Assembly (NCBI RefSeq): GCF_005405925.1
Contig: NZ_BJHV01000002.1
Coordinates: 66,558 to 130,557, forward strand
From: Streptomyces antimycoticus
Lineage (GTDB): Bacteria; Actinomycetota; Actinomycetes; Streptomycetales; Streptomycetaceae
DNA: 64,000 bases
Reading direction: 5' to 3'
The position numbers and the translations under genes are program-made. Below the pieces are notes generated by a model, which searched no databases, was not told where the DNA came from, and saw only the letters and a list, made by a program, of their open reading frames with translations. Below are positions 10,724-61,890 of this stretch, one piece after another (the stretch's first letter is position 1; the number at the start of each line of letters is the position of its first letter).

Positions 10724-11212
10724 ATGAGTAAAGCGTTTCTCGCTGCACGGCGGCTGGCCAGGTATGCAACTGTGCCCGCAGCCGTGATGCTTGCCCTGAC
10801 CGCGGCTCCGCCCGCGCAGGCGGAGCCGTTCCCGCCGTACTCCAAGTTCCAGATCTCCTACTGGACGGATCCCGCCCGCTGCGTCGGGTGGGCCAACGCC
10901 GGCGGCAGCTTGGACGCGTTGGAGAACCATGCGTGCGACGCTCGTGCGACCTGGACCTACAACCGGGCCACCCAGCAACTGATCAGCAACGACAACCGCT
11001 GCGTGGACGAGTGGATCGCGGGGATCCTGGAAGTCAAGTCCTGCGACACCAACCGCGCACAGCAGCGCTGGGAGGTCACCTACACAACTGACGGCTACTA
11101 CGTGATCCACCAAGCGGAAAACAGCCGTGGCCTCTTCTGGATGTGGACCCACGCCACCGGCGGGGGATCTACTTGGGTCGCCAACTGGACAGGTTCGCGG
11201 TCCGCGACGTGA
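10724..11212 (+). CDS. Secreted ricin-B-like (beta-trefoil) lectin
   Basis: 162 aa from the ATG at 10724. The N-terminus is a Sec signal: basic KAFLAARRLAR, a hydrophobic core, and an A-Q-A site near residue 34. The mature part has a ricin-B-like layout with WTDPARCVGWA, ENHACDARATWTYN, QLISNDNRCVDEW, then SCDTNRAQQRWEV, where QQRW is the QxW motif. It probably binds sugars outside the cell. Only one to two trefoil repeats are evident, so it is a short member. A terminator follows at 11,240. Confidence 0.7.
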   Translation: MSKAFLAARRLARYATVPAAVMLALTAAPPAQAEPFPPYSKFQISYWTDPARCVGWANAGGSLDALENHACDARATWTYNRATQQLISNDNRCVDEWIAGILEVKSCDTNRAQQRWEVTYTTDGYYVIHQAENSRGLFWMWTHATGGGSTWVANWTGSRSAT

Positions 11213-11239
11213 GCTGAAGACTGCTGAAAATCTCGCGTT

Positions 11240-11273
11240 CTGGCCCCGGCTCGGTGGAGTCGGGGCCAGTTTT
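11240..11273 (+). terminator. Rho-independent terminator after the lectin gene
   Basis: CTGGCCCCGGCTC and GAGTCGGGGCCAG pair over 13 positions (one G-T) around the loop ggtg, followed by TTTT at 11,270-11,273. Confidence 0.8.
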
Positions 11274-11387
11274 GTAGGCATGCAAGGCGAATGGGCCGGG
11301 GAGACGGCTGTGAGTGCCAACCCCGGCGGACCGCCATCCCGGAAAATGTGGCGGGCCCGGCCGGTACCCGCCGCCGTCGACCCGGAC

Positions 11388-11448
11388 CTGCCGAGTGCGG
11401 ACATCCGCATCGGGTACGCCCGCTGCTCGCACCTCAGCCAAGAATTCG
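11388..11448 (+). pseudogene. N-terminal scrap of a serine recombinase
   Basis: The translation LPSADIRIGYARCSHLSQEF matches the opening strand of serine recombinases, including the catalytic-serine region GYARCS. Similarity is lost after residue 20. It has no start codon of its own and is in frame with the next gene, so an automatic annotation would wrongly fuse it to that gene. Confidence 0.5.
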
Positions 11449-11525
11449 CCAGGTGTGACCGGCGGGCGTTGTCGTCCCAGCCGACGAAGCGCAGTGTGTC
11501 GGTGTCGAGCCGTAGCGTAATGTTC

Positions 11526-12266
11526 ATGAATCTCAGGTACATACCGCCTGTTGAGGCGGAACGCCTCCGGCAGTTGCCGACCCGGGATATCGCGCTCCTT
11601 CTGCTGAAGCACCTTGCCGGCACCCCCGGCTATCTGCAGTACACAGGGACGATGATGTCGGCACGTCAGGCGTTCCAGGACGAGCCGGACACGAACACGC
11701 TCGTGGAACGACTGTCCGATGCCTGGTGCTGGCTGGAGGCGCATGCACTGCTGACCCGGGAGCCCAGCCAGTCCGAGGCGTTCCGTCGGGTCTCCCGCGA
11801 CGGTATGGACCTGGTGAACGACCCGCAGGGCATCACGCGGTTCGAGGCCCGCGAGCGGCTGTCCGGTCCGCTGCACCCGGCGCTGGAAGGAACGGTGCGC
11901 ACCAACTTCCACCTGGGCGACTACGAGACGGCGTGTTTTGCCGCGATGAAGGCGGTCGAGGTCGCCGTGCGGGACGCCTCCGGACTCGATAACTCCCTGG
12001 TCGGCGTGCCCTTGATGCGTGCGGCGTTCCAGCCGTACAGGAACGGCAAGGGCGGGCCGCTCGCCGACGCGGGTGCCGAGGGCGGAGAGCAGGAGGCAGC
12101 GTCCGCGTTGTTCGCTGGCGCCATGGGGGCGTTCAAGAATCCGTCCAGCCATCGCACTGTCGACTTCGACGACCCGATCGAGGCGGCCGAGATCATCCAG
12201 TTCGCGGACCTGCTGCTGCGGCAGGTCGAACGCGCCAAGCGCCGTCAGGCCGCAGCGGCGGTGTAG
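11526..12266 (+). CDS. TIGR02391 family protein (Ymh-like)
   Basis: 246 aa. The C-terminal two-thirds carry the family signature: FHLGDYETACFAAMKAVEVA, DASGLDNSLVGVPLMRAAF, FAGAMGAFKNPSSHRTVDFDDP, EAAEIIQFADLLLRQVE. Such proteins are common in mobile and defence regions; the activity is unknown. The start is uncertain: ATG 11,520 and 11,526 are adjacent, no Shine-Dalgarno is seen, and a TAGCGT sits just upstream, so it may be leaderless. Upstream in the same frame lies recombinase debris, which I exclude. A C-terminal fragment of a relative occurs at 53.1-53.4 kb. Confidence 0.75.
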   Translation: MNLRYIPPVEAERLRQLPTRDIALLLLKHLAGTPGYLQYTGTMMSARQAFQDEPDTNTLVERLSDAWCWLEAHALLTREPSQSEAFRRVSRDGMDLVNDPQGITRFEARERLSGPLHPALEGTVRTNFHLGDYETACFAAMKAVEVAVRDASGLDNSLVGVPLMRAAFQPYRNGKGGPLADAGAEGGEQEAASALFAGAMGAFKNPSSHRTVDFDDPIEAAEIIQFADLLLRQVERAKRRQAAAAV

Positions 12267-12273
12267 GCCGGTC

Positions 12274-12513
12274 TCATCGCTCGACTTCACGCCGGGCGAG
12301 CTCCTTCAGTTCCATGCGCGCGGCCGGTGTGCCCGACGGTCCACACCAGTACGGGTGCCCGGCGATCTGCGCCGACAGCTCCTGCAGGCGACGGCGGTCA
12401 CTCGTGGTACTCGCCGTCGGACTGGAGTCGGCGAGCCGCCAGTACGTGCGGTACCAGGCGGTCTGCGCCTCCACGAGGTCGAGGGGGAAGTCATGCTGAC
12501 CCATGCCTTGCAT
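12274..12513 (-). CDS. Small conserved actinomycete protein, 79 aa
   Basis: Convergent with the TIGR02391 gene, 7 bases apart. The product opens with HDFPLDLVEAQTAWYRTYWRL and ends IAGHPYWCGPSGTPAARMELK. The pattern DFPxDLxxAQ ... HPxW also appears in the 116-aa protein at 29,290, and a truncated copy lies at 33,461, so this is a small paralogous family in the window. No signal peptide or membrane segment is seen. Function unknown. Confidence 0.65.
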   Translation of the reverse strand: MQGMGQHDFPLDLVEAQTAWYRTYWRLADSSPTASTTSDRRRLQELSAQIAGHPYWCGPSGTPAARMELKELARREVER

Positions 12514-12699
12514 TAGATCTCTTGTTCGAATTCCAGGGCAACCAGACGCCCCCAGGGGGCGTGCAGCAGGAGGTCGGTGCGGGAGGTCTCCGGTTGATAT
12601 GCCTGCGTGCTCGAGGGCAGATGGAGCCCTGGTGCCGCGTATCCACTTTGGGGTGACAGCCCTGGGAAATGAGCGTTCGGCCCGGCGGGGCGGTCCACG

Positions 12700-13398
12700 G
12701 TGACGGTCATGATGATTCGACGCTGGGCCGCTGCGGCGGCCGCCATGCTGGCAACCGCCGGATTCGTGGGTCCCGCCTCTTCCAGCAGGGCTGTGCCGAG
12801 CACGCCGGGTACGGCATCCTCCGCCGCTCTACCTGTATCGACGATGGAGCTCCCGGAGCCTCCGACGGCCGAGGAGGCCCGGGCGGAGCTGGGCCAGTTG
12901 ACCGTCGCACCCGAGGTCGACGTCCCCGGATACAGCCGGGCGAAGTTCCCCCACTGGGCCACCCAGTACGGCAGCTGCGACACCCGCGAGATCGTCCTCG
13001 CCCGGGACGGCGATCAGGTCACCCAGGACGGTCAGTGCCGGGCCACGGCTGGCAGCTGGCGCTCGGCGTACGACGGCGCGGTGCCCGACGCGGCGTCCAA
13101 GGTGGACATCGACCATGTCGTGCCGTTGAAGGAGGCTTGGCGGTCCGGCGCCTCGCAGTGGACGACCGCGGATCGCCGGGCCTTCGCCAACGATCTCGCC
13201 CATTCCCAGCTCATCGCCGTCTCCGCCCGCTCCAACCGGGCAAAGAGCGACAGGGACCCCTCCGATTGGCAGCCGGACCTGGCCAGCTACCGCTGCACGT
13301 ACGCCCGCGCGTGGATCTCGGTGAAACACGCCTACGCCCTCACCACGGACGAGGAAGAACGTGCCGCGCTGACCGGCATGCTCGACACCTGCGCCTGA
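12700..13398 (+). CDS. Secreted HNH nuclease, copy 1
   Basis: 232 aa. Residues 5-30 are a signal peptide (MMIRRWAAAAAAMLATAGF). The mature part has GYSRAKFPHWATQYG and paired cysteines. It also has SAYDGAVPDAASKVDIDHVVP (D138, H139), FANDLAHSQLIAVSARSN and RAKSDRDPSDW, the HNH layout of secreted DUF1524-type nucleases. It probably cuts extracellular DNA for nutrition or competition. A GTG start is given; ATG 9 bases later is equally good. The 65 bases upstream are nearly repeated before copy 2 (25,449), so the control region was copied with the gene. Copy 3 (36,797) is more diverged. Confidence 0.85.
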   Translation: MTVMMIRRWAAAAAAMLATAGFVGPASSSRAVPSTPGTASSAALPVSTMELPEPPTAEEARAELGQLTVAPEVDVPGYSRAKFPHWATQYGSCDTREIVLARDGDQVTQDGQCRATAGSWRSAYDGAVPDAASKVDIDHVVPLKEAWRSGASQWTTADRRAFANDLAHSQLIAVSARSNRAKSDRDPSDWQPDLASYRCTYARAWISVKHAYALTTDEEERAALTGMLDTCA

Positions 13399-42607: not shown

Positions 42608-42806
42608 AATGGCCTTGTTCACGAGTGTCGGGTTCTGGCACAGATCTTGGGGAGCCGTCGCAGAGCGTTACCGCGATGTTCGATTGTGAGGAGACAGGGT
42701 CGCGTGAGACCGCGCACGCCTTGTCGTCCGGCGATCAGAATTGACGCTCCCTCAGGTGTCTGCCCATCGCTGCTGCGGTCAGTTGTGGATGGCGATGGTG
42801 CTGGTC

Positions 42807-43815
42807 ATGCAGACCTATGCAGCGTTCTGGGACTCGCTGGTGTTCGACGGGATCGACGCTGTGGACGTCGAGGCGGTTACGGCCGCGTTCGGCACGGCCG
42901 AGGTGGTGGCGAGAGGCCGCGCGGCCGGGGCGGCTTGTCCGGACTGCGGCCGCTTTTCGGACCGGGTCCACGACCGTTACCAGCGCACGCTGAAGGACCT
43001 TCCGCTCGCTGGGCAGGGCTTTGTGATCCGGCTGACGGTCCGACGCTTCATCTGCGGGTCGGCGGACTGCCCGCGCCGAACGTTCGCTGAGCCGTTCTCG
43101 CGGCTGGCCGCCCCGCACGCACGGTTCACCACGCGGCTCAACGCCGCCCTGGAGCGAGTTGGGCTCGCGCTGGCCGGGCGGGCCGGCGCCCGGCTGGCTG
43201 CCCAGTTGGGATCCGGCGCGGGACGGATGACCTTGTTACGCAGGGTCATGGCACGGCCCGATCCAGAGTTCAGCACACCGCGCATGCTGGGCGTGGACGA
43301 CTTCGCGATCCGTCGCGGCCAGACCTATTCCACCGTCTTGACCAGCGTCGAAGACCATCGCGTGGTCGATGTGCTCCCGACCCGTGAAGCCGGGCCGCTG
43401 GCCGCCTGGCTGATCCGCCACCCCGGCGTGGAGATCATCTGCCGGGACCGGGCGGGCGCCTACGCCGAGGGTGCCCGCCGCGGTGCCCCCGACGCTCTGC
43501 AGGTCGCCGACCGATTCCATCTATGGCAGGGCCTCGGTCGAGCCGTGGAGACCTGCGTCGCTGCCCATCGCGACTGCCTGCGCAATTCGTCGCCCAGCGG
43601 CATGTTGCCGGAGGCCACCCGACTGGCTTCCGGCAGGCCGCAGGACGACTCGGTGCCCGCCGGTCGGCGGGCGGAGCGGAAGAAGGCCGCACACGCCCTG
43701 GTCCACGAGCTCCTTGCCCAAGGTCACTCACGCCGGGCGATCGCCCGGCACCTGGGCTGGGGCCTCAACACCGTGCTCCAGTACGCGAACGCCGCCCGCT
43801 GGCAGGACACAATCC
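42807..43815 (+). pseudogene. ISL3-family transposase, split by the Tn3 transposon
   Basis: The product has the ISL3 zinc-ribbon (CPDCGRFSDRVHDRYQRTL, FICGSADCPRRTFAE), then MLGVDDFAIRRGQTYSTVLT with the first catalytic Asp, ICRDRAGAYAEGARRGAPDA with the second, and ADRFHLWQGL. The frame is cut at 43,815, inside the codon for the R of QDTIR. It resumes at 51,109 (RENRPRPSRLDPYKPYLERR) and stops at 51,200. The start is uncertain; ATG 42,807 is one option. The C-terminus after 51,200 is also missing. Confidence 0.8.
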
Positions 43816-43851
43816 GGGGTGCCGGTAAGAACGCTGTCACCAGCCGCAAAC
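43816..43851 (+). repeat. Left terminal inverted repeat of the Tn3 element
   Basis: 36 bases identical to the complement of 51,068-51,103. Preceded by the AATCC target copy at 43,811-43,815. Confidence 0.92.
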
Positions 43852-43858
43852 CGCTGCT

Positions 43859-44547
43859 CTACTCCGCCGGCTTCAGGGGTCGGGGCAGTTCGGCTGCGGC
43901 TGTCGCCTCGGCGAGCGCGACCCGCCCGCCCTTCAGCTCGGGCACGTACTTGTAGATCGTGTTCCTGCTGACGCCCAGGAGCTTACGATGGACGTGACGG
44001 TGTTCCCTGGGCGGGTGAGCAGGTCCCGGGCGTGACGCACCTGTTCCTCGGTCATGGCCGGCGGGCGGCCCAGCCGGGCGCCGCGGGCGCGGGCGGCGTC
44101 CAGGCCCTCGTTGGTGCCCTGCACGATGAGTTCCCGGATGAACTCCGCGAGTGCGGCGAACACATGGAATACCAGGCGCCCGCCCGGCGTGGTGGTGTCG
44201 AGGGCCTCGTGTAGCGAGGTGAAGCCGACGCCGCGCTTGCGCAGGCCGGAGACGATCGCGATGAGGTCCTGGATGGAGCGGCCGAGCCGGTCCAGGGAAG
44301 GGACGACGAGGGTGTCTCCTTCGCGGAGGTAGTCGAGCGCCTTCCACAGTTCCTCGCGCTCGGCGTTCTTGCCGGACTTCTTGTCGGCGAAGATCCGGAT
44401 GCAGCCTGCTTCGGTGAGTGCGTGGATCTGCCGGTCGAGCAACTGTCCCTTCGTCGATACGCGGGCGTACCCCACGAGGGCGCCGGTCCGTATGGTGGGG
44501 ACGGGGGTGAGGAGATCGGCGGTGTCGTCGTCGGAAGGCGTCTGCAC
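43859..44547 (-). pseudogene. Tn3 resolvase (serine recombinase), one-base frameshift
   Basis: GTG 44,547 start. Core: LVGYARVSTKGQLLDRQIHAL with the catalytic Ser, FADKKSGKNAEREEL, VPSLDRLGRSIQDL, GGRLVFHVFAALAEFIREL. The natural end, KLLGVSRNTIYKYVPELKGG to PLKPAE at 43,859, is in another frame. One C seems missing near 43,986 (SIA-KLL becomes SIVSSW). The DNA-binding HTH sits after the shift, so as written the protein could not bind res. A sequencing error is possible. Confidence 0.8.
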
Positions 44548-44670
44548 CCGCGAGATCGTACAGAAAAGGGTGCTGCTGAAGTTCTTGAGCACGCCGACTT
44601 TCTGACACCGTTTTACGAGCATGATCCGGCGCCGGTCCGGCCGCGAACCCCGGTTAATTGATCTTGCTCA
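44548..44670. promoter_or_regulatory. Likely res site and promoter of the Tn3 element
   Basis: The only gap between the resolvase start and the cargo. It holds partial dyads (for example acggtgtcagaaag and aagggtgctgctgaag on the + strand read) and a short AT-rich run (ttaattgatcttgctcatcaatcg). By position, res should be here. I cannot resolve subsites by eye. Confidence 0.4.
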
Positions 44671-47541
44671 TCAATCGGTCGATTGCTGAACGCCACTTGC
44701 CTCCCGCTGCCACCAGGCAAGGTTGTCTCGGACATCGAGGGTGTGGGGGTGGTCCGGGCCGAAGATCCGCTCATGGTCGACCAGCAGCTCCGCGTAGGCG
44801 GCGGCGGCAACAGCCGCGTCCCCGGCTTCCCCTCGCCACCAGGCAAGGTCGTTACGGGTGGCGAGAGTCTGAGGGTGGTCAGGGCCAAGGACCCGCTCCC
44901 GATCAGACAGCAGCTCGGCGAACGCCGTCGCCGCGTCAACCGTGTCCCCAGCTTCCCCTCGCCACAACGCCAGATTGGCTCGGACGGTGAGGGTGTGGGG
45001 GTGGTCCGGGCCGAAGATCCGCTCATGGTCGACCAGCAGCTCCGCGAACGCAGCGACAGCGCCAGCTGTGTCCCCCGCCGCTCCCCGCCACCAGGCAAGG
45101 TCGTTACGGGTGGCGAGGGTGTCGGGGTGGTCCGGTCCCAGCAGCCTCAGGTAGTCGGCCAACAGCTCCTCCAAGGTGGTGACCGTGCCGGCCGCGTCTC
45201 CCGCCTGACCTCGCCAAACAGCGAGTTTGGCCTTGGTAGCGAGGGTCTCGGGGTGGTCGGGGCCGAGGATCCGCTCCTGATCGAGCAGCAGCTCCGCGAA
45301 CGCAGCGACAGCGCCAGCTGTGTCCCCCGCCGCTCCCCGCCACCAGGCAAGGTTGGCTCGGGTTAGGAGGGTGTCGGGGTGGTCGGGGTCCAGCAGCCTC
45401 AGGTAGTCGGCCAACAGCTCCTCCAAGGTGGTGACCGTGCCGGCCGCGTCTCCCGCCTGACCTCGCCAAACAGCGAGATTTACCTTGATAGCGAGGGTCT
45501 CGGGGTGATCCGGACCCAGCACCCGTTCTTGATCAAGCAGCAACTCCGCGCACGCCATTGCCGCGCCAGCCGCGTCCCCGGCTTCCCCTCGCCACCAGGC
45601 AAGGGCGAGACGGGTGGCGAGAGTCTGGGGGTGGTCGGGGCCGAGGATCCGCTCCTGGTCGAGCAGCAGCTCCGCGAACGCAGCGACAGCGCCAGCCGAG
45701 TCCCCCGCCCTTCCCCGAGAGTAGGCAAGGTTGTTCCTGGTGGTGAGGGTGTTGGGGTGGTCGGGGCCGAGGATCCGCTCCTGGTCGAGCAACAGCTCCG
45801 CGAACGCTGTCGTGGCGCCGACCACGTCCCCCATCCGCCCACGCCACCGAACTAGGTTGGTCCTGGTGGTGAGGGTCTGGGGATGGTCGGGTCCGAGAAT
45901 CCGTTCCCGATCAAGCAGCAGCTCCGCGCACGCCGTCACCGCGCCGACCACGTCCCCCGCCTCTCCCCGAAAGAGAGCAAGGTCGTTGCGGGCGGCGAGG
46001 ACGTCGGGGTGATCCGGGCCCAGGCGGTTGCCTGCGGTGTCGACCAAGTGCTGGAAGTGCTCCAGGGCGGCCGCGAGCTGGCCAAAATTTCCGAGGCTCT
46101 GGCCCATACAGAAGAGGACTACATGCACGCCGTCAGCGGAGTGGTAGAGGAAGTCCTCGGCGTGTTGGGTGAGCGCGTTTACGTTGTCGCGCAGGGACCG
46201 CGCCAGAGCGGTGTCGTGTCCAGTGTCGGGCCACGCATCGAAGAGGGCATCAGCCGCGGCGCGGGCCAGAACGTCAAGTGCTGGGCTGGTGAAGGCTTCC
46301 AGGGTGGCGCGTTGGATGAGCTGGTGAATGCGCATTGAGTGCTGCGGAGACTCGGGATCGTGGTCGATGAGGCTCAGACGGTGCAGAGCACGGAGTGCGC
46401 CCCAGACGTCCAGCTCCGTCACTTCATCCACGGTGCTCTGCTCGGCTGCTGCCTGGGTACGGTACTGAGCAAGATAGGTTCGGGCAGGCTCACTGGTCAG
46501 AACGCTCTGGGGAATGCCGTTCGGATCCAGCATGGCGGCGAGCTGAAGCGTGGGGCGGGCGAGGCCGGCGGGGTTGAGGTTGTCAGCGCGTTCGATCGAC
46601 AGCGACCAGGTAGCGCTCACGGTGGTGTCCTGGTCGTCTGGCAGCATGCCGAGCTCGGGCAGCATGCTGGCGAGGCTGGTGGCGCGGTCAGCGAGTCGAC
46701 GGCGGTAGCTGGGGCACTGCCGGTGGGTACATCGCGAGCAGCCGACGGGAATATCGGCATCGACGATGTAGGTAGCAGCCTGCGAGAGGGCTAGCGGCAG
46801 GTAGCCAAGGTCCTGGGCCAACGCACGGATTTCGTCTGTGTCATCGTGCCGTCCGTGTTCGGCCAGGAAGTCAACCAGATAGGCGACTGCCTGATCCGGA
46901 GTGAAAACCCCGAGGTCAATCCGATGACCAGGTAGAGCGGCATCGCGGCGCCGCGTCGTGACCACCGTGCGGCCGTACGGGCTCTTCGCCGGCCACAACC
47001 CGGCCACGTCATCAGGGTCGGCGACATCGTCGAATACGACCAGCCACCGGCACACGGTCTCGGATCCTGGCGGCTTAGGTTCAAGCCATCTCAGGAACGC
47101 ATGTGCGGATCGCTCGGGGTCACCAGGTTCGAGGGCAAGGAGTTCTTCGCCAGCCTGGGCGAATGCGGAGACGATCGCGGAGCGGCTGCTGGCGCTGACC
47201 CAGACCAGCACATCCAATTCGCCCCCAATCCACGCCTGCCGCGCGTAGTGGGCGGCGAACTGGGTCTTGCCGACGCCGCCCGTGCCCCGTAGCACCTGAC
47301 ACAGCACCGCGGTGCCGCTGTTGGTGACCGCAGCCCGCAGTTGGTCGATCTCGTCTCGTCCCTGGAAGGCCGCAGCTTCGCGGGGAAGGACACCGACCTG
47401 GTGCGGCCACGGGACCGGCTCCCGCCCATGCACGTGCACGGTCGTGATGTCACCGCTGTGGTATCCGCTGATCGATACTCCTGCTGGCCCGGAAGTCGCT
47501 TGACCCGTGTCCCGAACCTCGATACCCCGCCGTCCTGCCAT
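44671..47541 (-). CDS. NB-ARC/TPR NLR-like protein, cargo of the Tn3 element
   Basis: 956 aa. Residues 8-31 carry a short motif (TGQATS ... VSISGYHS) that is repeated in the upstream membrane protein. The NTPase follows: Walker A LRGTGGVGKTQ (~86-94), Walker B WLVVFDDVAD (~166-175), VVTTRRRDAALPGH, and GLP-like LGYLPLALSQAA. A Cys cluster (C-SRC-THRQC) follows. A winged helix comes next (WGALRALHRLSLIDHD). From ~480 on there are 11 TPR/kinesin-light-chain repeats of 42 residues, each with ERILGPDHPxTL. One 84-residue pair occurs twice in tandem. Family members are STAND sensors; many act in phage defence. No effector domain is fused, so the partner may be the effector. Confidence 0.88.
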   Translation of the reverse strand: MAGRRGIEVRDTGQATSGPAGVSISGYHSGDITTVHVHGREPVPWPHQVGVLPREAAAFQGRDEIDQLRAAVTNSGTAVLCQVLRGTGGVGKTQFAAHYARQAWIGGELDVLVWVSASSRSAIVSAFAQAGEELLALEPGDPERSAHAFLRWLEPKPPGSETVCRWLVVFDDVADPDDVAGLWPAKSPYGRTVVTTRRRDAALPGHRIDLGVFTPDQAVAYLVDFLAEHGRHDDTDEIRALAQDLGYLPLALSQAATYIVDADIPVGCSRCTHRQCPSYRRRLADRATSLASMLPELGMLPDDQDTTVSATWSLSIERADNLNPAGLARPTLQLAAMLDPNGIPQSVLTSEPARTYLAQYRTQAAAEQSTVDEVTELDVWGALRALHRLSLIDHDPESPQHSMRIHQLIQRATLEAFTSPALDVLARAAADALFDAWPDTGHDTALARSLRDNVNALTQHAEDFLYHSADGVHVVLFCMGQSLGNFGQLAAALEHFQHLVDTAGNRLGPDHPDVLAARNDLALFRGEAGDVVGAVTACAELLLDRERILGPDHPQTLTTRTNLVRWRGRMGDVVGATTAFAELLLDQERILGPDHPNTLTTRNNLAYSRGRAGDSAGAVAAFAELLLDQERILGPDHPQTLATRLALAWWRGEAGDAAGAAMACAELLLDQERVLGPDHPETLAIKVNLAVWRGQAGDAAGTVTTLEELLADYLRLLDPDHPDTLLTRANLAWWRGAAGDTAGAVAAFAELLLDQERILGPDHPETLATKAKLAVWRGQAGDAAGTVTTLEELLADYLRLLGPDHPDTLATRNDLAWWRGAAGDTAGAVAAFAELLVDHERIFGPDHPHTLTVRANLALWRGEAGDTVDAATAFAELLSDRERVLGPDHPQTLATRNDLAWWRGEAGDAAVAAAAYAELLVDHERIFGPDHPHTLDVRDNLAWWQREASGVQQSTD

Positions 47542-47568
47542 ACCGCTCCCCCCTGCCGACGCCCTGGG

Positions 47569-47913
47569 CTACTTCTCGCTGTATCCGCTGATGGCGTCGC
47601 CATCTCCGGTCGCTTCTGCATCGCCTGTCCGCTCGACAGTGACGGGGCGCGCAGATCCGCTCCCGTGATAACCCGTGACCGCGTTGCCTTTGCCTGCTGT
47701 CTTAGCGGTACTGGTTTCGCGAACAACGATGGCTGATTGACTGGCGCCAGGGAGCGCTGCCCAGATTCCGATGCCTACCGCTGCCACACCTGCGAGAGCG
47801 GAGGCCACCGTCGCGATCCGGCTTGCTGTCTCCCACTGCGAGACGGCGAACATCCACCCCAGGACAGCGACCACCACGCACGTCGCGACCAACACCACGC
47901 GCTTCAAAGTCAT
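47569..47913 (-). CDS. Two-helix membrane protein sharing a motif with the NLR, 114 aa
   Basis: Two hydrophobic segments (VVLVATCVVVAVLGWMFAV, residues 6-24; IATVASALAGVAAVGIGIWAAL, 33-54) are followed by a ~60-residue tail. The tail has the motif twice: RETSTAKTAGKGNAVTGYHG (65-84) and RTGDAEATGDGDAISGYSE (95-113). The same pattern, T-x-A-x-x-x-G-x-x-(V/I)-(T/S)-G-Y, opens the NLR 27 bases downstream. Shared motifs between an NLR and an adjacent membrane-active protein are the hallmark of amyloid-type signalling pairs, in which the sensor seeds the effector. I infer this role. Confidence 0.75.
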   Translation of the reverse strand: MTLKRVVLVATCVVVAVLGWMFAVSQWETASRIATVASALAGVAAVGIGIWAALPGASQSAIVVRETSTAKTAGKGNAVTGYHGSGSARPVTVERTGDAEATGDGDAISGYSEK

Positions 47914-47966
47914 CCCGTCATCGTTGCTCAGGCTGAGTCGCGATGGGAGTGCTTTGGCCGAGCCCC

Positions 47967-50900
47967 TCATCTTCCGATGTGCGGGGGGCCATGCACAGTG
48001 ACGGCAGTGAGGTTCAGGCGGGCGTCCATGTCGAGGTTGACCTCGCCGTACGGGCGGACGTGGGACCAGAACAACGGGGTCAAGCCGCGCCGATCGGCGG
48101 GGGTGAGGAGGTCGGCCCACTCCGGTTCGCCCAGGATGTCCTGGAGCATCAGGGTGTTCACGAAGACCAGGGCCGACTGCAAAATTCGCAGGCACAAGAC
48201 GAACATCTCCTGCTCGTCCCGTCGGTTCGAGACGATCTCCCCGCCCTTGCCGTAGGCGATCACACTGTTGGCGCCGTTGGAGGACTCCATCACGTTCAGG
48301 CCCTCCTCGATCTCCCGCTGGAGATCCCGAAGCCGCAGATAGCGGGCCACGAAGATGGTCTTCTGCGCGCGGCCGACCTCCAGCATCGCCGCGTAGGTGA
48401 GGTGGGAGGCGTTGCGGGTGAAGCGGCGCAGGATCGCCTCGGTCGACGCAGTCCGCGTACGGATCGCGGTCGCATACTTGATCATCTGGTCGTACTGCTG
48501 GGCGATGAGTTCCCAGCGGATCGGGCGGGTCAGTGCAGGCGTGAGCGCCGGGTAGGCGTCCGTCTCGCCGGCCACCGGCCGGTACAACTTGGCCTTGTTG
48601 ATCCGCTTGATGCGCGGCAGCAGGTCGAAGTTCAGCAGCCTCGTGATGCCGAACCCGATTTCCGACTGGCCGTGGCTGTCCGTGTAGTTGGCCTCGACGT
48701 CCATGGTGGTGCCGTGCCGCATGGCGCCCTCGACCATCGCGGCGACCTCGGAGGCCGTGCAGTTGATGAGCTGGGAGTGGATGGCCAGGGACTTCTTCTC
48801 CACGTGCCAGTAGATGAGCACCCCGCGGCCGCCGTAGCGCGAGTGCCACTCGGTGAATAGATTCTGGTCGTAGGCGCGCACGTGGGTGGAGTCGGAGGCG
48901 ACCGCGGTCGAGCCCTGGCCCCACACCTCGGTGCTGCGGGCGGCGAAGGTGGCGTTCGCGATCTGGATGGCGATGGCGCGGGCGGCCTCGGCGGACAGGT
49001 ACCGGCGGCGTACGTAGCGCAGTTCGTCCTCGGTGTGGCCGTGGCCGCCGGAGGCGACGGCCTTGATCCCGGTGTTCGTGCCGTAGGCGTAGATCACCAA
49101 CAGCAGGCGCTCGGCCAGGACCTCCGCCAAGAGACTGCCGCCTCCGGAGACCGAGGTGACCGCGTCCAGGCAGCCGGTGCGCAGCACCGCTTCCTTGAGC
49201 ATGTCGATGAGCGGCACGATGCCCCACCGGCGCTGTACCTCGCTCTTGATCCTGCGCAGGTTCTTCGGCTCGGGCTGGGCCTCGGCCGGAGTCAGCCGGA
49301 TCGCCCCGGACTTCCGCTCGGCGATGTCCAGCCAGCTCAAGCGCGGCATCCCATCGTTCAGCAGCGTCAGCTCGGTGGTCATCTGCTCGCGCAGCTCGTC
49401 GATGAAGTCGGCCGCGTCCAGCGGCTTGCGCAGCTCGCGGTAGTTCTCCTCGCGCCGCTCGGCGAAGTCCTGGGGCAGGTCCTCGTCGGGGTTGCGCCAC
49501 TTATCGGCGCCGACCACCCAGACCTCCTTGCACTTGAGCTGGTCGCGCAGGGCCTGGAAGGCGACGACCTCGTAGACCATGCGCACCACCCGGCGTCGGC
49601 CCCGCTTGTCGGTGCGGTGGACGACCTCGGCCCAGTCCCCGCCCATCGCCTTGTGCACCGGCACGGTCTCGCCCAGCGGGTAGTACGTGGTGTTGCCCGC
49701 CGCCGCGTACCGGGCCACCAGCGCCAGCGCCTCGATCACCGGCCGGTGGGTGTGGTTGGACGAGCGGAACTCCAGCACGTCCAGCAGCTTGATCAGCCCG
49801 CGCCGGTAGTGGTTGGTGTACGACGCCTTCAACGTGGTCTGCACCGTGCGCCGGTAGACCGGTCCGCGGGTCTTGAACTCGTGCACCAGCTCCCGCAGCG
49901 TCTGCTCACCGCCGGACACCGCCGGGTAGACGACCTCGCGGACCGTGCCCTCCGGCTCACCGATTGACGCCTCGGCGAGCTTGAAGAGGATGTTCTCCTT
50001 GCCCGACACCTTCTTGAACGCGTTGACCAGCTGCTCGGTGACCTTCTTCTCCGCCCGCGCCCCGATCCGGTGCACCGTGGAGATCAGCAGCTCCACCAGC
50101 GTGTCCGTGATCTCCCGCTCCCGCTCGTGCAACAGCGCGGCCAGCAGCGTCACCCGCAGCGGCAATGGGTGCGTCCGCAGATGGGACGGGGATTCGACCG
50201 CGGCCCGCGCCCGCCACCCGGCCGCCACCTTCGGCGCGACATCGGAGAACAGGTCTGCCGGCAACCCGACCGCCCTCACCGCGAGCAGCTTGTCGATCTC
50301 GGTGAGCATCGTCTCCAGACTCACATTGCCCGGAGCCTCCTTGATCTTCCCCAGGACCGGCGGGCCGTCCTCGCCCTCACCGGCACCGGCTTCACCGAGT
50401 ACGGCGTCGTCCTCCTGGACGGCGCCCGCGACCAGGGCGACTCCGCTCCGTGCTCTCCACCGTGAGCCACGCCGAGATCCTCGCCGTCAGAGTCTCCTCG
50501 GCCACGCGCAGCGCGGCGCCCACGATCCGGTCGCACCGCCCCGGAGTCGGCGGCTCGATGCTCTCCGCGCGGCAGCGAGCGAGCAGTTCCACCTGTACCT
50601 GCTCTGGCCGCCGCTCCTTGCACGCGACGTGCTCGGCGAGCCAGCCGGTCAGCTTGTCCGCGTCCGCAACGCTGCACTCCCGAAAGCCCAGGTGCCCTCG
50701 GATCTGGGCGCGGTGGTACTCGACCGTCCGGCCGCTCCACTCGTACGCGTCCAGTTCGGCGGCGGGTACCTGTACCTGCCGGGCGACGAACTCCACTACC
50801 TCGCCCGGCAACTCGAACCGGCCCCGAGGAAACCGGCCGTGCTGCGTATAGAACTTCAGCAACACGGCGAAGCCCAGCCGCGTCGCACCGCGCTTGCCGG

Positions 50901-50976
50901 ACACAAGCGCCTGCTCGTCCTTCAACAGCGTCCAGTGCTCGACCAGGTCGTCCAGGTCCAAAGGGGTACGGGCCAC
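47967..50976 (-). CDS. tnpA: Tn3-family transposase TnpA (one-base frameshift near 50,451)
   Basis: About 1,000 aa in two frames. The N-terminal part reads DLDDLVEHWTLLKDEQALVSG to RISAWLTVEST (50,976-50,450). The next frame continues SGVALVAGAVQEDDAVLGEAG to the stop at 47,967. The catalytic core is seen: VASDSTHVRAYDQN (Asp), EANYTDSHGQSEIGFGI (Asp), IEEGLNVMESSNGANSVIAYGKGGE (Glu). This is a full-length Tn3 transposase except for one extra or missing base, so it may be active if the shift is an error. GTG 50,324 could start a shorter product without the N-terminal end-binding domain. Confidence 0.85.
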
Positions 50977-51067
50977 GGTCGTCGATCGTCCTCTCGGGGC
51001 CTCGCCCCGCGCAGCTGTACGACCCCGGACTCACCCACACGGGTGACGCTCTCGCAAGATCACCGCC

Positions 51068-51103
51068 GTTTGCGGCTGGTGACAGCGTTCTTACCGGCAC
51101 CCC
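51068..51103 (-). repeat. Right terminal inverted repeat of the Tn3 element
   Basis: Exact complement of 43,816-43,851, followed by the second AATCC at 51,104-51,108. Confidence 0.92.
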
Positions 51104-51108
51104 AATCC

Positions 51109-56959: not shown

Positions 56960-59641
56960 CTACTGGGTGGCGCGCAGGTGGTCTTGACGGGCGATGACCA
57001 GGGCGCGCCAGCGTTCTCGGACGGTGTGTGCGTCGTAAAGCCACTGGATGGTGCTTCCGGCGGGTTGGGGCAGGTTGCCCATGGCGGTGGCGATGTCGAC
57101 GTAGTAGGTGAAGTCGCCGTTGGCGGTTGCTTCGCGCAGGCGGTCGAGGGTGGCGGTGAGGTCGTGTGGTGCGTCGCGTACGGCGTGGTGGAAGGCGAGG
57201 GCGGTTTCCAGGAGTGGGGTGAGCCAGGCGAGGCCGGCAACGGTGATTTCGGTGCGCAGCATGGTGGCGCGGTCGGTGACGTCGTGGTCGGTGCCGGCGT
57301 CGCGGAGGAGGGCGGCGACGTGAGCGTAGAGGGTGGTGGCGCGTTGGTCGAGCGGGGCGAGGTACTGGTGGGCGAGGGCGAGTTCGTCGTCGGCGCGGTG
57401 TGGGTCGGTGAAGGCGGTGACCAGGGCGAGGAGGGTCTGGGCGATGGCTCGCTCGCCGGGGGCGTTGTGCTGTTCGGCTTCGGTCCGTGCGGCTTCGAAG
57501 GCGGCGATGGCGTTGTCGATGTCGCCGTGGGGCCATCTGATGTGGGCCAGGACGCGGTGGTGGCGGCCTTTCCAGCCCAGGGTGGGGATGGCGGCCAGCG
57601 CGGTGGGGAAGTCGCCCCGGATGCGGGCGAGGTTGGCCAGGCCGCGGTGGGCGCGTGGGGCGAGCCGGCCGTCGGCGTCGGCGACCTGGCGCATGCCGTG
57701 CGCGGCGGCGTCGGTGCGGCCGAGGTCTTTGTGGGCTTTCGCCCGGTAGTACAGGGCGAGTTCGGTGAGTTCGCCGGAGAGTAGGCCGGTGCTCAGGACG
57801 GCGGTGAGGCGTTCGGCGGTGCGTTCGCGGTGCTCGTGCTGGCGGCGGGCGATGGCGGTGAGGAGCTCGGCCAGGGCGTCGGCGGGTGTGTCCGGGCCCG
57901 GCTGCGGCTCGGTGCCGGGGGAGGGGCTAGGGGTGTGGGTGGGTGGGGCGAGGGGTTCCCAGACGGAGTCGGCGGTGTAGGCGAAGGCGGCCTCGGTGAG
58001 CCAGCCGAGGTCGCTCAGGTGGTGGTCGCGAGCCAGGCGCAGGCCCTGGCGCAGGCACGCGACGAGGAGGGTCCGGCTGGGGAGGAGGGTGCTGGTGTCC
58101 TGCCATTGCCGGCCGAGGGCGGCGAGGGCGCGTTCGGCGGCTCGGTGCCAGTCGGCGGGGGTCCAGTGGTCCTCGGTGTGGTCGTCGGCGCGTAGCGCGG
58201 TGCGGATGGCGCCGTGCAGGTGGTAGGGCCAGATCGCGTGTGGATCCTCGGTGATCATCGGCCGCTCGACGAGCCGGCGTGCCGCCGCCTGGTGGGCCAG
58301 GCCCGCCGCTTGGGTGGCCAGGTCGAGGTCGAAGGCGTCCAGCAGGCTGGCGCTGCGCAGGACATGGCGCTCGTCGACAGTGAGGTCGGAGAGGGTGCGG
58401 GCGATGAGGGCGGGGAAGGTGTGGTCGAAGTCGGCGAGGGTGGGGGTGCGGCCGGTGCGGCGGATCTCCAGGAAGCGTGCGACGGCCAGGTCCAGGTGGA
58501 GCGGCAGGCCGTGCGAGCGCTGGGTGATGACCGCGCGGATGTCAGGGCCGATCAGCGGCCGGCCGTTGTGGGTGAGGCGGTGGGCGAGGTAGGTGTCGCA
58601 ATCCTGCTCGGAGAAGTCCCCGATCAGGTGCTGGCGGGCGCCGCCCTGCCCGGTGGCCCGGGCCGGCCGCCCGGAGCGGGCGGCCAGGCCGGGCCAGGCG
58701 GCGGGGCCGGTGTAGTCGAGCTGGCCCTGGAGAGCGTCGTCGGCCCACTGAAGACGGTTGCGGCCGCTGATGACGAAGAAGCAGTTCGGCATGAGCCATA
58801 CCAGGCGTTGCAGGAGCCGCTCGGCGTCACGGTGGCGGTCGCCGGTGTCCTCGAAGGTGTCCAGCAGGATCACCGGCGTGACCTTTCTGTCGGCCGGGAG
58901 CTGGGCGAGCTCCCACGCCAGCAGGTGCGGATAGAAGGACAAGGTGTCCAGATCGGGTTCGGCCTCCAGCAGGTCGGCCAGCCGCGCGCACCCGGCGAGT
59001 GCGCGGACGGTCTGCCGGCGCTCCCGCAGCGCCCGCACCAGGGAGCCGGTCACCTGGCCGACCGCGGACCCGACGGTGCCGGGCAGGAGCAGGGCCTGGG
59101 CGACGTCGGACAGCGCGGACTGCATCTGCTGCGGCAGCGCCCGGCTGAATCGGGAGGTCAGCCCGCCGCGGTGCAGGTACTCCTCCAGGGGCTCGCCGGG
59201 ATGCTGGTGCTCCCAGTACCGGCGCAGCGCCACGTCGAAGGCGGGCAGGGGGCCGAGCTCGGCGAGCGCGGCCCGGATCGTGAGGACGATCCGTTTGAAG
59301 TCGGTGCTGGCGGAGCGGGCGAGGTCGATGCGTACGGGCCAGATCCGCTCGCCGGACCAGGTCGGGGCGCCCCACTGGGCGGGCCGGCGTCCGGCGTCGG
59401 CGAGCGCGGCCTCCAGCTTGCGCGACAGCGTCGTCTTGCCGATGCCGCCGGCACCGTGGAACACGAGCACGTTGTCGCGGGGCGCCTCGAGGTCCTCAAC
59501 GTCGAAGGCCGGATCAACGGTGTGGCGCAGGTGCTCCTCGAGGGCGGTGGCGACGAGGCTCCACTGGATCTGCCGGTTAGTGAACGCCTCATTGCTGCCC
59601 ACGGGGTCATTGGAGCTGAACAGCGCCCGAAGGTCGGCCAT
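56960..59641 (-). CDS. STAND NTPase with C-terminal TPR-like helices
   Basis: 893 aa. P-loop VLVFHGAGGIGKTTL (60-72), Walker B VTPVILLDTFEDTGD (~258-272), sensor-like NCFFVISGRNRLQW and the helical end of the NTPase (HGLPLHLDLAVA). After ~480 the protein is helical with TPR-type spacing (AAERALAALG, ELALYYRAKAHKDLGRTDAA, AHRGLANLARIRGDFPTALA, DIDNAIAAFEAARTEAEQ). No HTH or enzymatic effector domain is recognised at the N-terminus. Likely a sensor ATPase; defence or signalling is inferred. Unlike the NLR at 44.7 kb its repeats are degenerate. Confidence 0.8.
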   Translation of the reverse strand: MADLRALFSSNDPVGSNEAFTNRQIQWSLVATALEEHLRHTVDPAFDVEDLEAPRDNVLVFHGAGGIGKTTLSRKLEAALADAGRRPAQWGAPTWSGERIWPVRIDLARSASTDFKRIVLTIRAALAELGPLPAFDVALRRYWEHQHPGEPLEEYLHRGGLTSRFSRALPQQMQSALSDVAQALLLPGTVGSAVGQVTGSLVRALRERRQTVRALAGCARLADLLEAEPDLDTLSFYPHLLAWELAQLPADRKVTPVILLDTFEDTGDRHRDAERLLQRLVWLMPNCFFVISGRNRLQWADDALQGQLDYTGPAAWPGLAARSGRPARATGQGGARQHLIGDFSEQDCDTYLAHRLTHNGRPLIGPDIRAVITQRSHGLPLHLDLAVARFLEIRRTGRTPTLADFDHTFPALIARTLSDLTVDERHVLRSASLLDAFDLDLATQAAGLAHQAAARRLVERPMITEDPHAIWPYHLHGAIRTALRADDHTEDHWTPADWHRAAERALAALGRQWQDTSTLLPSRTLLVACLRQGLRLARDHHLSDLGWLTEAAFAYTADSVWEPLAPPTHTPSPSPGTEPQPGPDTPADALAELLTAIARRQHEHRERTAERLTAVLSTGLLSGELTELALYYRAKAHKDLGRTDAAAHGMRQVADADGRLAPRAHRGLANLARIRGDFPTALAAIPTLGWKGRHHRVLAHIRWPHGDIDNAIAAFEAARTEAEQHNAPGERAIAQTLLALVTAFTDPHRADDELALAHQYLAPLDQRATTLYAHVAALLRDAGTDHDVTDRATMLRTEITVAGLAWLTPLLETALAFHHAVRDAPHDLTATLDRLREATANGDFTYYVDIATAMGNLPQPAGSTIQWLYDAHTVRERWRALVIARQDHLRATQ

Positions 59642-60189: not shown

Positions 60190-61890
60190 TCAGGTGGGCA
60201 CGGGCAGCGCGGTGGCGGGGGCAGCGGGCATGTCGAGCTGTTGCGGCCGGTGGGCGGGCATCAGCGGACAGGCCAGCCCGGCGATCGCGACGAGGTCGTC
60301 GCGGTACTGCGGCATCGCTGTGTGCAGCCAGCGCTGGGTGGCCCAGAACCCGGCGGCTTCCTCGGAGGTGTAGGGGCGGTAATGCTCCGCGGTCACGGCG
60401 AGGCCGGATGCGGGGCGCCGGGCCCAGCGCCCTTGGTCGGTCAGGTGGTTGCGGTAGAGAGGGTGGGCATCGCGTCGCATCACCACCACCTCGTCGACCA
60501 CAGTCATCTGCTCGGCCAGGGCCACCGTCTCGGGCAGGACTGTGAAGCAGGCGTTGTGCCCGGCGCCGGTGGTGAACCGCGCGGGAATGCCCTGCTGGTT
60601 CAGGTGGGCATACCGGGCGGCCGTGCCCTGGCGGGAATCGGCCTCGCGGACCGCCAGGGCCGCCAGTTGCACGCGGTAGCCCGCCTGCCGGTCCACGGCC
60701 GCGCGGGCGGCGAACTGGACAGCGCTTTCAGGGGTGATCTCGATGACCATGTCCCCGCGCCGATCGCGCACGTGCGCTTCGGCCCATGCCTGCCAGGCCC
60801 GGTAGTCGGTGCGTATCCGCGCCGAAGCCGTGCGCGGCTCCTCACGCAGCAGCTGCAGGTAGTCCGGATGAGCCTGCTTGAAGATCTCGCCCGTAATGTG
60901 CACGGGATCGCGCAGGCTGCGCAGGATCATCTGGGCGATCCGCGTCTTCCCGGCGCCCGGCTGGCCCATCACGTAGACGACGACCGGCTGTTCCTGGCCG
61001 GTGATGGGCCCGAGGGACGGCACGATCAGCTCGTCGTAGATCCACTTGTGCTCCTCGACGGAGAGCCGGTGGTAGTCCACCCCGGGCGCGTCCCGGCGGG
61101 GCTGGGCGATGCGCCGGAGCGGCTCGGCCAGCGCGGCGGCGCGCTCGGAGTTGCGGCGCACCGCGAGCGTCCAGTCCTCCGGCAGCGCGGGATCGGCCAG
61201 GCGCCGGTCGGCGTCAACGAGTTGTCGGCGGATCCGCCCCGTCTCCCTGGCACCCCACGGCCGGCGCCACTCGGTGAGCACCGCGCCCGGCGCGTCTGCC
61301 GGGCGGAGCAAACGCCCGCTGGGGCCGAGTTCGTTGTCGTAGATGACGTCCAGCGCCGTCTCTTCGCCGCGCCGGATGACGAACAGGCGGTGCGCCAGGT
61401 GCGCGGCCTCCACCGCCCCGAGGGCCGGGGTAAGCGCGTCGGCGCATGTGCCGTGGTTGTCCCAGGAGACGTACCGGGGCGCAAGTCCCTCCCGGGCCAG
61501 GCGCAGAAACCGCTCCAGGGCGCTGAGTTCGCTGACCGCCCAGGACACGGCCAGGGCCACGACCTCCACCCAGTAACCCGCCTCCCGGGACGCGAGGACA
61601 CCGGCGAGAAAGTCCTCCGGGCGGGACAGCGGTACCTCCACGACCGCGTCATAGCGGCCCTCGCGCGCCGCGGCCTCCACGGCGGCCTGCCACCGGTACG
61701 TCTCCGGCCGGACCCGCTCCCCGGCGGTGCGCACGTCCTCGGCCAGGTACTGGCTGTAGTGGGGGTGGAGGGTCTTGTAGGTGTCGCGGTCGACCCGCAC
61801 CGCCCCGCCTCGCGCCGCCAGCGCGGCGTGCACGAGGTCGATGACCGTGGTCTTGCCGCTGCCCGGCTGCCCCAGGACGTACACCACCAC
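60190..61890 (-). CDS. Tandem double zeta-toxin-like kinase
   Basis: 566 aa with two P-loop kinases. Domain 1 has VVVYVLGQPGSGKTTVIDLV near residue 1, then RVDRDTYKTLHPHYSQYLA. Domain 2 has VVVYVMGQPGAGKTRIAQMI (~301-320), then ITGEIFKQAHPDYLQLL. Both have the zeta-type FVIRR/VVMRR strand after. Zeta toxins phosphorylate UDP-N-acetylglucosamine-type sugars. The GTG start given leaves no room for the first strand; the frame is open back to ~62,020 (VGDWAEEVLANTVLPGVLEG), without a good start, so the true start may lie across a frameshift. No epsilon antitoxin is seen. Confidence 0.8.
   Translation of the reverse strand: MVVYVLGQPGSGKTTVIDLVHAALAARGGAVRVDRDTYKTLHPHYSQYLAEDVRTAGERVRPETYRWQAAVEAAAREGRYDAVVEVPLSRPEDFLAGVLASREAGYWVEVVALAVSWAVSELSALERFLRLAREGLAPRYVSWDNHGTCADALTPALGAVEAAHLAHRLFVIRRGEETALDVIYDNELGPSGRLLRPADAPGAVLTEWRRPWGARETGRIRRQLVDADRRLADPALPEDWTLAVRRNSERAAALAEPLRRIAQPRRDAPGVDYHRLSVEEHKWIYDELIVPSLGPITGQEQPVVVYVMGQPGAGKTRIAQMILRSLRDPVHITGEIFKQAHPDYLQLLREEPRTASARIRTDYRAWQAWAEAHVRDRRGDMVIEITPESAVQFAARAAVDRQAGYRVQLAALAVREADSRQGTAARYAHLNQQGIPARFTTGAGHNACFTVLPETVALAEQMTVVDEVVVMRRDAHPLYRNHLTDQGRWARRPASGLAVTAEHYRPYTSEEAAGFWATQRWLHTAMPQYRDDLVAIAGLACPLMPAHRPQQLDMPAAPATALPVPT

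What the first reader, a model, noticed from the sequence alone, without database searches (positions are those of the whole stretch)
44671..47913. NLR and adjacent membrane protein share a repeated short motif: candidate amyloid-type signalling pair
The motif T-x-A...G-x-x-(V/I)(T/S)GY appears once at the NLR N-terminus (VSISGYHS) and twice in the tail of the two-helix protein (AVTGYHG, AISGYSE). In known bacterial NLRs, amyloid signalling motifs shared with a neighbouring gene connect sensor to effector. Here the partner would be a membrane protein with two transmembrane helices, which could permeabilise the cell membrane.
Basis: partly seen in the sequence, partly recalled or inferred. Interest (0 to 1): 0.9.

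Follow-up and report, generated by a model that had tools for sequence, protein, structure and literature searches.

The report
Transposon-borne NLR and membrane effector pair
A bacterial immune-type sensor and a tiny membrane protein next to it share a short motif that probably passes the alarm from one to the other by self-assembly, and in this bacterium the pair sits inside a jumping gene.

Summary
Confirmed, and not chance. The NLR (NB-ARC+TPR, 956 aa) carries one copy, and the 114-aa two-helix membrane protein two copies, of a motif [VA]xxTGxAxA(x)GGxAx[TS]G. A profile built from effector tails alone scores in 44 of 89 downstream large frames against 2 of 847 others, both NLRs adjacent in another arrangement. 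Among 30 loci with NLR bodies homologous to the window's (itself included), the motif stands in 9 of 9 with the two-helix neighbour and 0 of 21 others; 14 of those have a Bell-type effector with another tail. On the NLR-body tree, effector and motif were exchanged together repeatedly. AF2 models two sets of beta strands in the tail, and likewise on a different, helical effector with the same motif. It works like, and most likely belongs with, the bacterial amyloid NLR signalosomes (BASS/Bell); the two-helix effector and the vehicle differ. The pair is cargo of a Tn3-family transposon (43816-51103, matching 5-bp duplications), in a slot that holds another NLR/effector pair in a near relative. 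Fibrils, membrane damage and defence were not testable.

The parts
47569..47913 (-). Two-helix membrane effector, 114 aa (P0001)
   Evidence: translation; 32 homologues; alignment; hydropathy; model
47755..47817 (-). Second predicted membrane helix (residues 33-53); A44, G47, W51 invariant in the 33-row alignment
47830..47907 (-). First predicted membrane helix (residues 3-28)
47665..47727 (-). Effector motif copy 1 (residues 63-83)
47578..47637 (-). Effector motif copy 2 (residues 93-112)
44671..47541 (-). NLR (STAND NTPase), 956 aa: N-terminal motif, NB-ARC, DUF7779, TPR array
   Evidence: Pfam; NCBIfam NF040586 438 bits
47458..47517 (-). NLR-side motif copy (residues 9-28)
46936..47295 (-). 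NB-ARC match (residues 83-202), with GTGGVGKT P-loop
   Evidence: sequence
43816..43854 (+). Tn3-family terminal inverted repeat, 39 bp (38 of 39 identical to the other)
51065..51103 (-). Tn3-family terminal inverted repeat, other end
43811..43815 (.). Target-site duplication AATCC, left
51104..51108 (.). Target-site duplication AATCC, right
43933..44622 (-). tnpR, serine resolvase
   Evidence: PF00239 143.5 bits
47967..50324 (-). tnpA, Tn3 transposase DDE part
   Evidence: PF01526 399 bits
50392..50976 (-). tnpA N-terminal part (DUF4158), in another frame than the DDE part
   Evidence: three of the four 95% relatives have one frame of 1012-1030 aa
44694..47990 (-). Cargo slot: the stretch in which related Tn3 elements differ (approximate limits)

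Best explanation
A two-gene immune-type signalosome. The NLR body (NB-ARC switch, TPR sensor) is thought to oligomerise on an unknown trigger; its N-terminal motif then nucleates a beta-solenoid or amyloid-like stack that templates the two tandem motif copies in the (presumably cytoplasmic) tail of the two-helix membrane protein, clustering its helices and damaging the membrane, which kills or stops the cell before an invader spreads. Shown here: shared motif, conserved adjacency and gene order, motif and effector exchanged together on homologous NLR bodies, a beta-strand model of the tail, and carriage in a Tn3-family transposon. Inferred: activation, templating, amyloid nature, membrane damage and a defence role.
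For: Motif in the next large frame downstream for 46 of 65 effectors; effector-only profile: 44 of 89 downstream large frames against 2 of 847 others, both adjacent NLRs. Motif in 9 of 9 homologous NLR bodies with a two-helix neighbour (the window counted) and 0 of 21 others (Fisher p 7e-8). On the tree of 27 of those 30 NLR bodies the two effector labels need 6 changes, well-supported branches force at least 5 changes of the two-helix label against all other rows, and one clade is rejected (p-AU 0.0015). Nearest case: L169 has 73% body identity to the window's NLR (275 of 376), alignable only from residue 40 on, with a Bell-type effector and another N-terminus. The tail motif occurs on three kinds of effector domain: two-helix, Bell-type helical and a further helical one. 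Partners include NB-ARC and NACHT/NPHP3_N NTPases, so the motif, not the NTPase class, is the common link. AF2 gives beta strands in two repeats of the tail on both effector types (block pLDDT 68-79; 72-91). Matched pairs have more similar motifs than mismatched ones (43.5 against 39.7, p 4e-4, 46 of 47 pairs).
Against: Pair-specific matching weakens when permuted within NLR clades (p 0.060, 0.0076, 0.0046 at three cut-offs). 19 of 65 effectors had no partner by the rule; for 12 of them another sign of a partner was seen (weak motif, other arrangement, short frame), for 7 none (L064, L071, L082, L085, L090, L093, L095), and L082 and L085, which have no motif copy, are probably not members. At lower cut-offs a few unrelated frames score too (4 of 847 at 6 bits, 5 at 4 bits). 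The membrane part of the model has low confidence (pTM 0.33), and no solved structure matches. PADLOC has no match for the effector and only a weak methyltransferase match in the NLR's TPR region (E 0.0013). tnpA of this copy is split between frames.
Confidence: 0.7

Rival explanations
1. The motif is a homotypic beta-type docking module that joins NLR and effector one to one or in a small ring, without prion-like fibril growth; the effector may act by recruitment.
For: The tail is predicted as a short beta unit; the exchange data ask only for specific pairing.
Against: Six Bell-type relatives carry RHIM-like tails, and fibrils of the RHIM-related bacterial motif BASS3 are mentioned in PMC7885112 (passages). 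This is by analogy only.
Confidence: 0.2
2. The pair is an addiction or stability module of the Tn3 transposon: the NLR restrains the membrane protein, and loss of the element frees it.
For: It sits between tnpA and tnpR in two elements; at least six toxin-antitoxin gene pairs are reported in Tn3 transposons (PMC7157771, passages).
Against: Of the loci held only L067 (= L040), L004 (= L028) and a short piece in L085 matched this tnpA or tnpR, a search that sees only relatives of this Tn3; cargo in sister elements is of other kinds (by eye); a large NTPase would be an unusual antidote.
Confidence: 0.08
3. The NLR belongs to the FxSxx-COOH peptide system named by NCBIfam and the small protein is an accessory of that system.
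For: NF040586 matches the NLR with 438 bits against a cut-off of 300.
Against: The best stretch covers residues 53-445, not the motif; the effector's C-terminus (SGYSEK) is no F-x-S-x-x end. No search for such a peptide gene was made.
Confidence: 0.03
4. The shared motif is a chance or composition effect of Gly/Ala/Thr-rich actinobacterial termini.
For: The motif is short and of low complexity.
Against: 0 of 5000 shuffles, 2 of 847 control frames (both adjacent NLRs), 0 of 21 homologous NLRs without the two-helix effector.
Confidence: 0.01

Closest known systems
Bacterial amyloid NLR signalosomes with BASS motifs and Bell effectors (Dyrka et al. 2020; paper not held; described here from passages of PMC7889193, and PMC8086366)
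   Same: Adjacent NLR and small membrane-type effector; motif at the NLR N-terminus and effector C-terminus; filamentous actinobacteria; a Bell-type helical domain carries the same motif.
   Different: The effector is a two-helix protein with a hydrophobic part of about 56 residues, not a helical bundle; two tandem motif copies on the effector side; carried by a Tn3 transposon. Which BASS number the motif has, and whether the 2020 paper lists two-helix effectors, could not be checked.
HET-S/NWD2 of fungi (mostly recalled; HET-s r1/r2/r0 motifs are named in PMC8086366, passages)
   Same: Two pseudo-repeats on the effector, one copy on most NLRs; beta strands predicted per repeat.
   Different: The tail profile matches no sequence of a solved structure and the model no solved fold; the effector domain differs.
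Two-membrane-helix effectors of other conflict systems, e.g. SLATT (PMC7159879, passages)
   Same: Small two-helix membrane protein predicted to form pores.
   Different: SLATT is described there as nucleotide-signal-responsive; here the link is a motif shared with an NLR. The two were not compared by sequence.
Tn3-family transposons with embedded toxin-antitoxin pairs (PMC7157771, passages)
   Same: Two-gene conflict-type module inside a Tn3 transposition unit.
   Different: NLR plus membrane effector, in a slot between tnpA and tnpR; [quoted passage not shown]

Membership tests
[quoted passage not shown]
   27 bp apart in the window; effector stop to NLR motif 17-210 bp in the 46 pairs
BASS/Bell-type amyloid NLR signalosome | Related motif at the NLR N-terminus and the effector C-terminus | tested here: met
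BASS/Bell-type amyloid NLR signalosome | Motif falls in one of the ten named BASS families | tested here: inconclusive
   family profiles not available; 93 of the 120 listed Bell-type relatives (of 215; ranked by likeness to a query with this tail, so biased) carry at least one copy, and 6 others a RHIM-like tail
BASS/Bell-type amyloid NLR signalosome | Peptides form fibrils and the NLR side seeds the effector side | not testable with these tools
   no experiment
[quoted passage not shown]
   by prediction the window's effector has two hydrophobic helices and no bundle; the Bell-type protein is modelled with five helices
NLR (STAND NTPase with repeat sensor) | NB-ARC or NACHT NTPase followed by repeats | tested here: met
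   NB-ARC 30.1 bits over cut-off 23.5, TPR_12 203 bits
Tn3-family transposon | tnpA with DDE_Tnp_Tn3 domain, resolvase, 38-40 bp inverted repeats, 5-bp duplication | tested here: met
   the transposase is split between frames, so activity of this copy is open
RHIM/BASS3 motif | G-(I,V)-Q-(I,V)-G core (PMC7885112, passages) | tested here: not met
   no such core in the window's three motif copies

The most novel reading that the evidence does not exclude
A class of two-helix membrane effectors, distinct from Bell, wired to NLRs by a tandem beta motif; effector and NLR N-terminal motif are exchanged as a unit on related NLR bodies near a breakpoint at about NLR residue 40, and such pairs sit in an exchangeable cargo slot of a Tn3 transposon family, so that amyloid-type immune signalling spreads as interchangeable mobile modules.
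Probability: 0.5. Interest if true: 0.75.

Novelty: new variant of a known kind. Interest (0 to 1): 0.62.

Why it matters
It gives a minimal, 114-residue effector with a natural exchange series (related NLR bodies, two different motif/effector sets), which makes the open question of how an NLR hands its signal to a membrane effector through a templated motif directly testable by motif swaps. It also shows that at least some such pairs travel as transposon cargo.

Tried and rejected
Viral contigs: no relative of the effector (single-protein query, close relatives only). Two weak hits in the own genome: L002 overlaps an aldehyde-dehydrogenase-like gene by eye, L003 (2 stops) was not followed. 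Family libraries: weak matches of the effector to DUF998, DUF4131 and STM3941 lie under their cut-offs and were not used. PADLOC: none for the effector, one weak match for the NLR. Structure searches: Foldseek found 0 matches for the two-helix model and none at E <= 0.001 for the Bell-type model (193 weaker ones); VIA-align had nothing to compare. Naming the BASS family: the 2020 paper is not held and the passages seen of open papers give no consensus. Pair-specific covariation is only moderate. The motif profile that included NLR copies is partly circular, so the control counts rest on the effector-only profile. Papers were searched; apart from the passages cited I saw only their listings, and in these no two-helix amyloid effector of NLRs and no Tn3-borne NLR; the key paper and most subscription journals are missing. 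PMC12261475 and PMC8195603 were seen in passages and not used further.
Full report
Observation. The NLR has NB-ARC, DUF7779 and TPRs (TPR_12 with 11 stretches) and matches NCBIfam FxSxx_TPR with 438 bits. The 114-aa partner has two hydrophobic helices and a tail with two motif copies; the NLR has one copy at residues 9-28. The match is not chance: 0 of 5000 shuffles, 0 of 99 control N-termini, and a profile without close relatives gives 12.8 bits against a shuffle maximum of 10.1.

Family. A search of 5.8 billion proteins gave 32 relatives of the effector; helices and the two repeats recur, with A44, G47, W51, A99 and G105 invariant in 33 rows. 24 loci came from genome contigs of Streptomyces, Amycolatopsis, Micromonospora, Nonomuraea, Saccharothrix and other actinobacteria, and 43 of 199 genomes of the window's genus have a match. 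The tool does not name that genus; it is Streptomyces by inference (a Bell-type protein from one of its genomes is identical to one of Streptomyces vinaceus). With the tails alone, 13 of 394 genomes of the class and 4 of 296 of the phylum match at E <= 1e-4. In one search the tail columns also hit the N-termini of ~1000-aa frames next door, without being asked to. I fetched wider stretches and examined 65 loci (24 + 40 + the window; L005 and L097 are the same place). By a fixed rule, 46 of 65 effectors have a motif-bearing frame of at least 250 aa just downstream, the motif starting 17-210 bp after the effector's stop. With the profile built from 146 effector repeats only, 44 of 89 downstream large frames (which include spurious overlapping frames) score at least 8 bits, against 2 of 847 other large frames; those two are NLRs that stand upstream (L010) or divergently (L017); at 6 bits it is 48 of 89 against 4 of 847. 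Of the 19 effectors without a partner by rule, seven have a large frame next door with a weaker motif by eye (L008, L018, L060-L063, L083, in part read on the shorter stretches of the same places), two an NLR in another arrangement (L010, L017), three the motif in a frame under 250 aa (L059, L070, L086), and seven show no motif-bearing partner.

Partners. Of 16 partner frames scanned, six have a NB-ARC, NACHT or NPHP3_N match over the curated cut-off, six a match under it (E <= 0.01), L009 and L016 (1265 and 1195 aa) only weak TPR-like matches, and the short frames L005 and L022 none. With the window's own NLR this spans NB-ARC and NACHT-like classes.

A natural swap experiment. I took the window NLR's body without its N-terminus (residues 60-420) and searched 150 genomes of the genus: 37 have a match, 50 matches, 30 loci fetched. 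The TG motif (at least 7 bits, effector-only profile) stands at the NLR N-terminus in 9 of 9 loci with a two-helix neighbour, the window being one, and in 0 of 21 others; 14 of the 21 have a Bell-type neighbour without the tandem TG tail, and 7 no effector that I could find in the 1.5 kb held. Of the 14 Bell tails, 13 as printed are of the type GxGGLAAGxDVxIxADxGSIAAGVIHGG or near it (L173 was printed in a broken frame), and their NLRs begin with a different stretch, e.g. HASDHSMTVGYVADGG in L169. A tree of 27 of the 30 bodies (three left out as too short) needs 6 changes between the two effector labels; starred branches force at least 5 changes of the two-helix label against all other rows, and a single clade is rejected, p-AU 0.0015. 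14 of 24 inner branches are open, so the exact number is uncertain. L169, sister to the window's NLR and L168 with full support, is 73% identical over the body, alignable from residue 40 on, yet has the Bell-type effector and another N-terminus. So effector and motif change together while the NLR body stays.

Same motif, other effectors. L089, L092 and L096 carry the tail on a helical domain. A search with L096's gave 215 relatives, 120 listed: 91 have two or more TG copies, 2 have one, 27 none; the list is ranked by likeness to a TG-tailed query, so these shares are biased. Among the 27, six end in a RHIM-like stretch by a lenient pattern of my own (IQVG in two, FQVG, FQTG or VQAG in four), and others in GGLAAG-type tails. 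The domain fits the published description of Bell (small helical bundle with a hydrophobic helix; PMC7889193, passages), and AF2 models it as five helices plus the tail, mean pLDDT 87. I therefore take it to be Bell, by inference, and the TG motif to be of BASS type; its number could not be checked. A third helical effector with the tail is in G095.

Structure. AF2 on 33 relatives models helices 3-28 and 33-53 and strands in both repeats of the tail (62-84 and 91-113; block pLDDT 68-79), overall pTM 0.33. The Bell-type protein gives a similar strand pattern for both repeats at higher confidence. I saw the secondary structure, not the coordinates; that each repeat is one rung of a beta-solenoid is my reading. 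No solved structure matches. This fits, but does not show, an amyloid of the HET-s kind.

Pair matching. Over 46 of 47 pairs, matched motifs are more similar than mismatched (43.5 against 39.7, p 4e-4), but within NLR clades the effect is p 0.060, 0.0076 and 0.0046 at three cut-offs: suggestive only.

Vehicle. The pair lies inside a Tn3-family transposon: 39-bp inverted repeats, 38 of 39 identical, at 43816-43854 and 51065-51103, flanked by AATCC on both sides; tnpA, effector, NLR and tnpR follow each other on one strand. It appears to interrupt an ISL3-like transposase frame. tnpA is split between two frames here, while three of four 95% relatives have one frame of 1012-1030 aa. Of 392 genomes of the genus 60 have a related tnpA at E <= 1e-100. 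Of 23 loci examined (20, L067, L004, the window), 7 have both repeats and matching duplications (window, L067, L128-L131, L140); L132 and L143 have two repeats without matching duplications, the rest one or none in the stretch held. Against the window, the tnpA side is 82-93% identical in DNA in the six others and similarity stops at the tnpA end (about 47965-48004); the tnpR side is 86-87% identical in L130, L131 and L140 and stops at the NLR's end (about 44688-44695); in L067 it runs on into the NLR at 71%; L128 and L129 share only the repeat there. In L067 the slot holds another two-helix/NLR pair (effector 40 of 101, NLR 538 of 927 aligned residues identical), both with the motif; in L131 a Bell-type protein with the other tail; in L128, L129, L130 and L140 other cargo, judged by eye. 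L004 keeps fragments of a more distant Tn3 on both sides of its pair. Three of 72,556 plasmid records have a match; one linear plasmid holds a 95.6% identical effector beside a DUF4158 gene and NB-ARC and TPR genes. The window is the last 64 kb of a 130,557-bp contig.

Judgement. Signalling link: very likely. In how it works, one of the BASS/Bell-type NLR signalosomes: likely; its effector is by prediction not a Bell domain. Amyloid, membrane damage and defence: inferred.

Noticed in passing
window 56960-59641 (-): A second P-loop (GGIGKTTL) STAND-like protein of 893 aa, outside the Tn3 element (by eye).
   Followed up: no
window 60190-61890 (-): A protein with two P-loop halves that looks like a zeta-toxin-type kinase (by eye); a zeta toxin gene is also annotated near the related pair on plasmid NZ_CP108830.
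   Followed up: no
window 42741-43955 (+): ISL3-like transposase frame that runs into the Tn3 end at 43816, apparently interrupted by it.
   Followed up: partly
L131 (G129) 11000-13130: The Tn3 slot holds a Bell-type protein followed by a membrane protein whose N-terminus resembles the NLR-side stretch of the other class (SIIASNGSLAFG), where an NLR would be expected (by eye).
   Followed up: partly
L163/L165 (G095): A third helical effector domain with the TG tail motif, upstream of a frame with two motif copies.
   Followed up: no
L005 (Streptomyces specialis): The NLR reading frame ends after 285 aa beside recombinase-like frames (by eye); the effector is intact.
   Followed up: no
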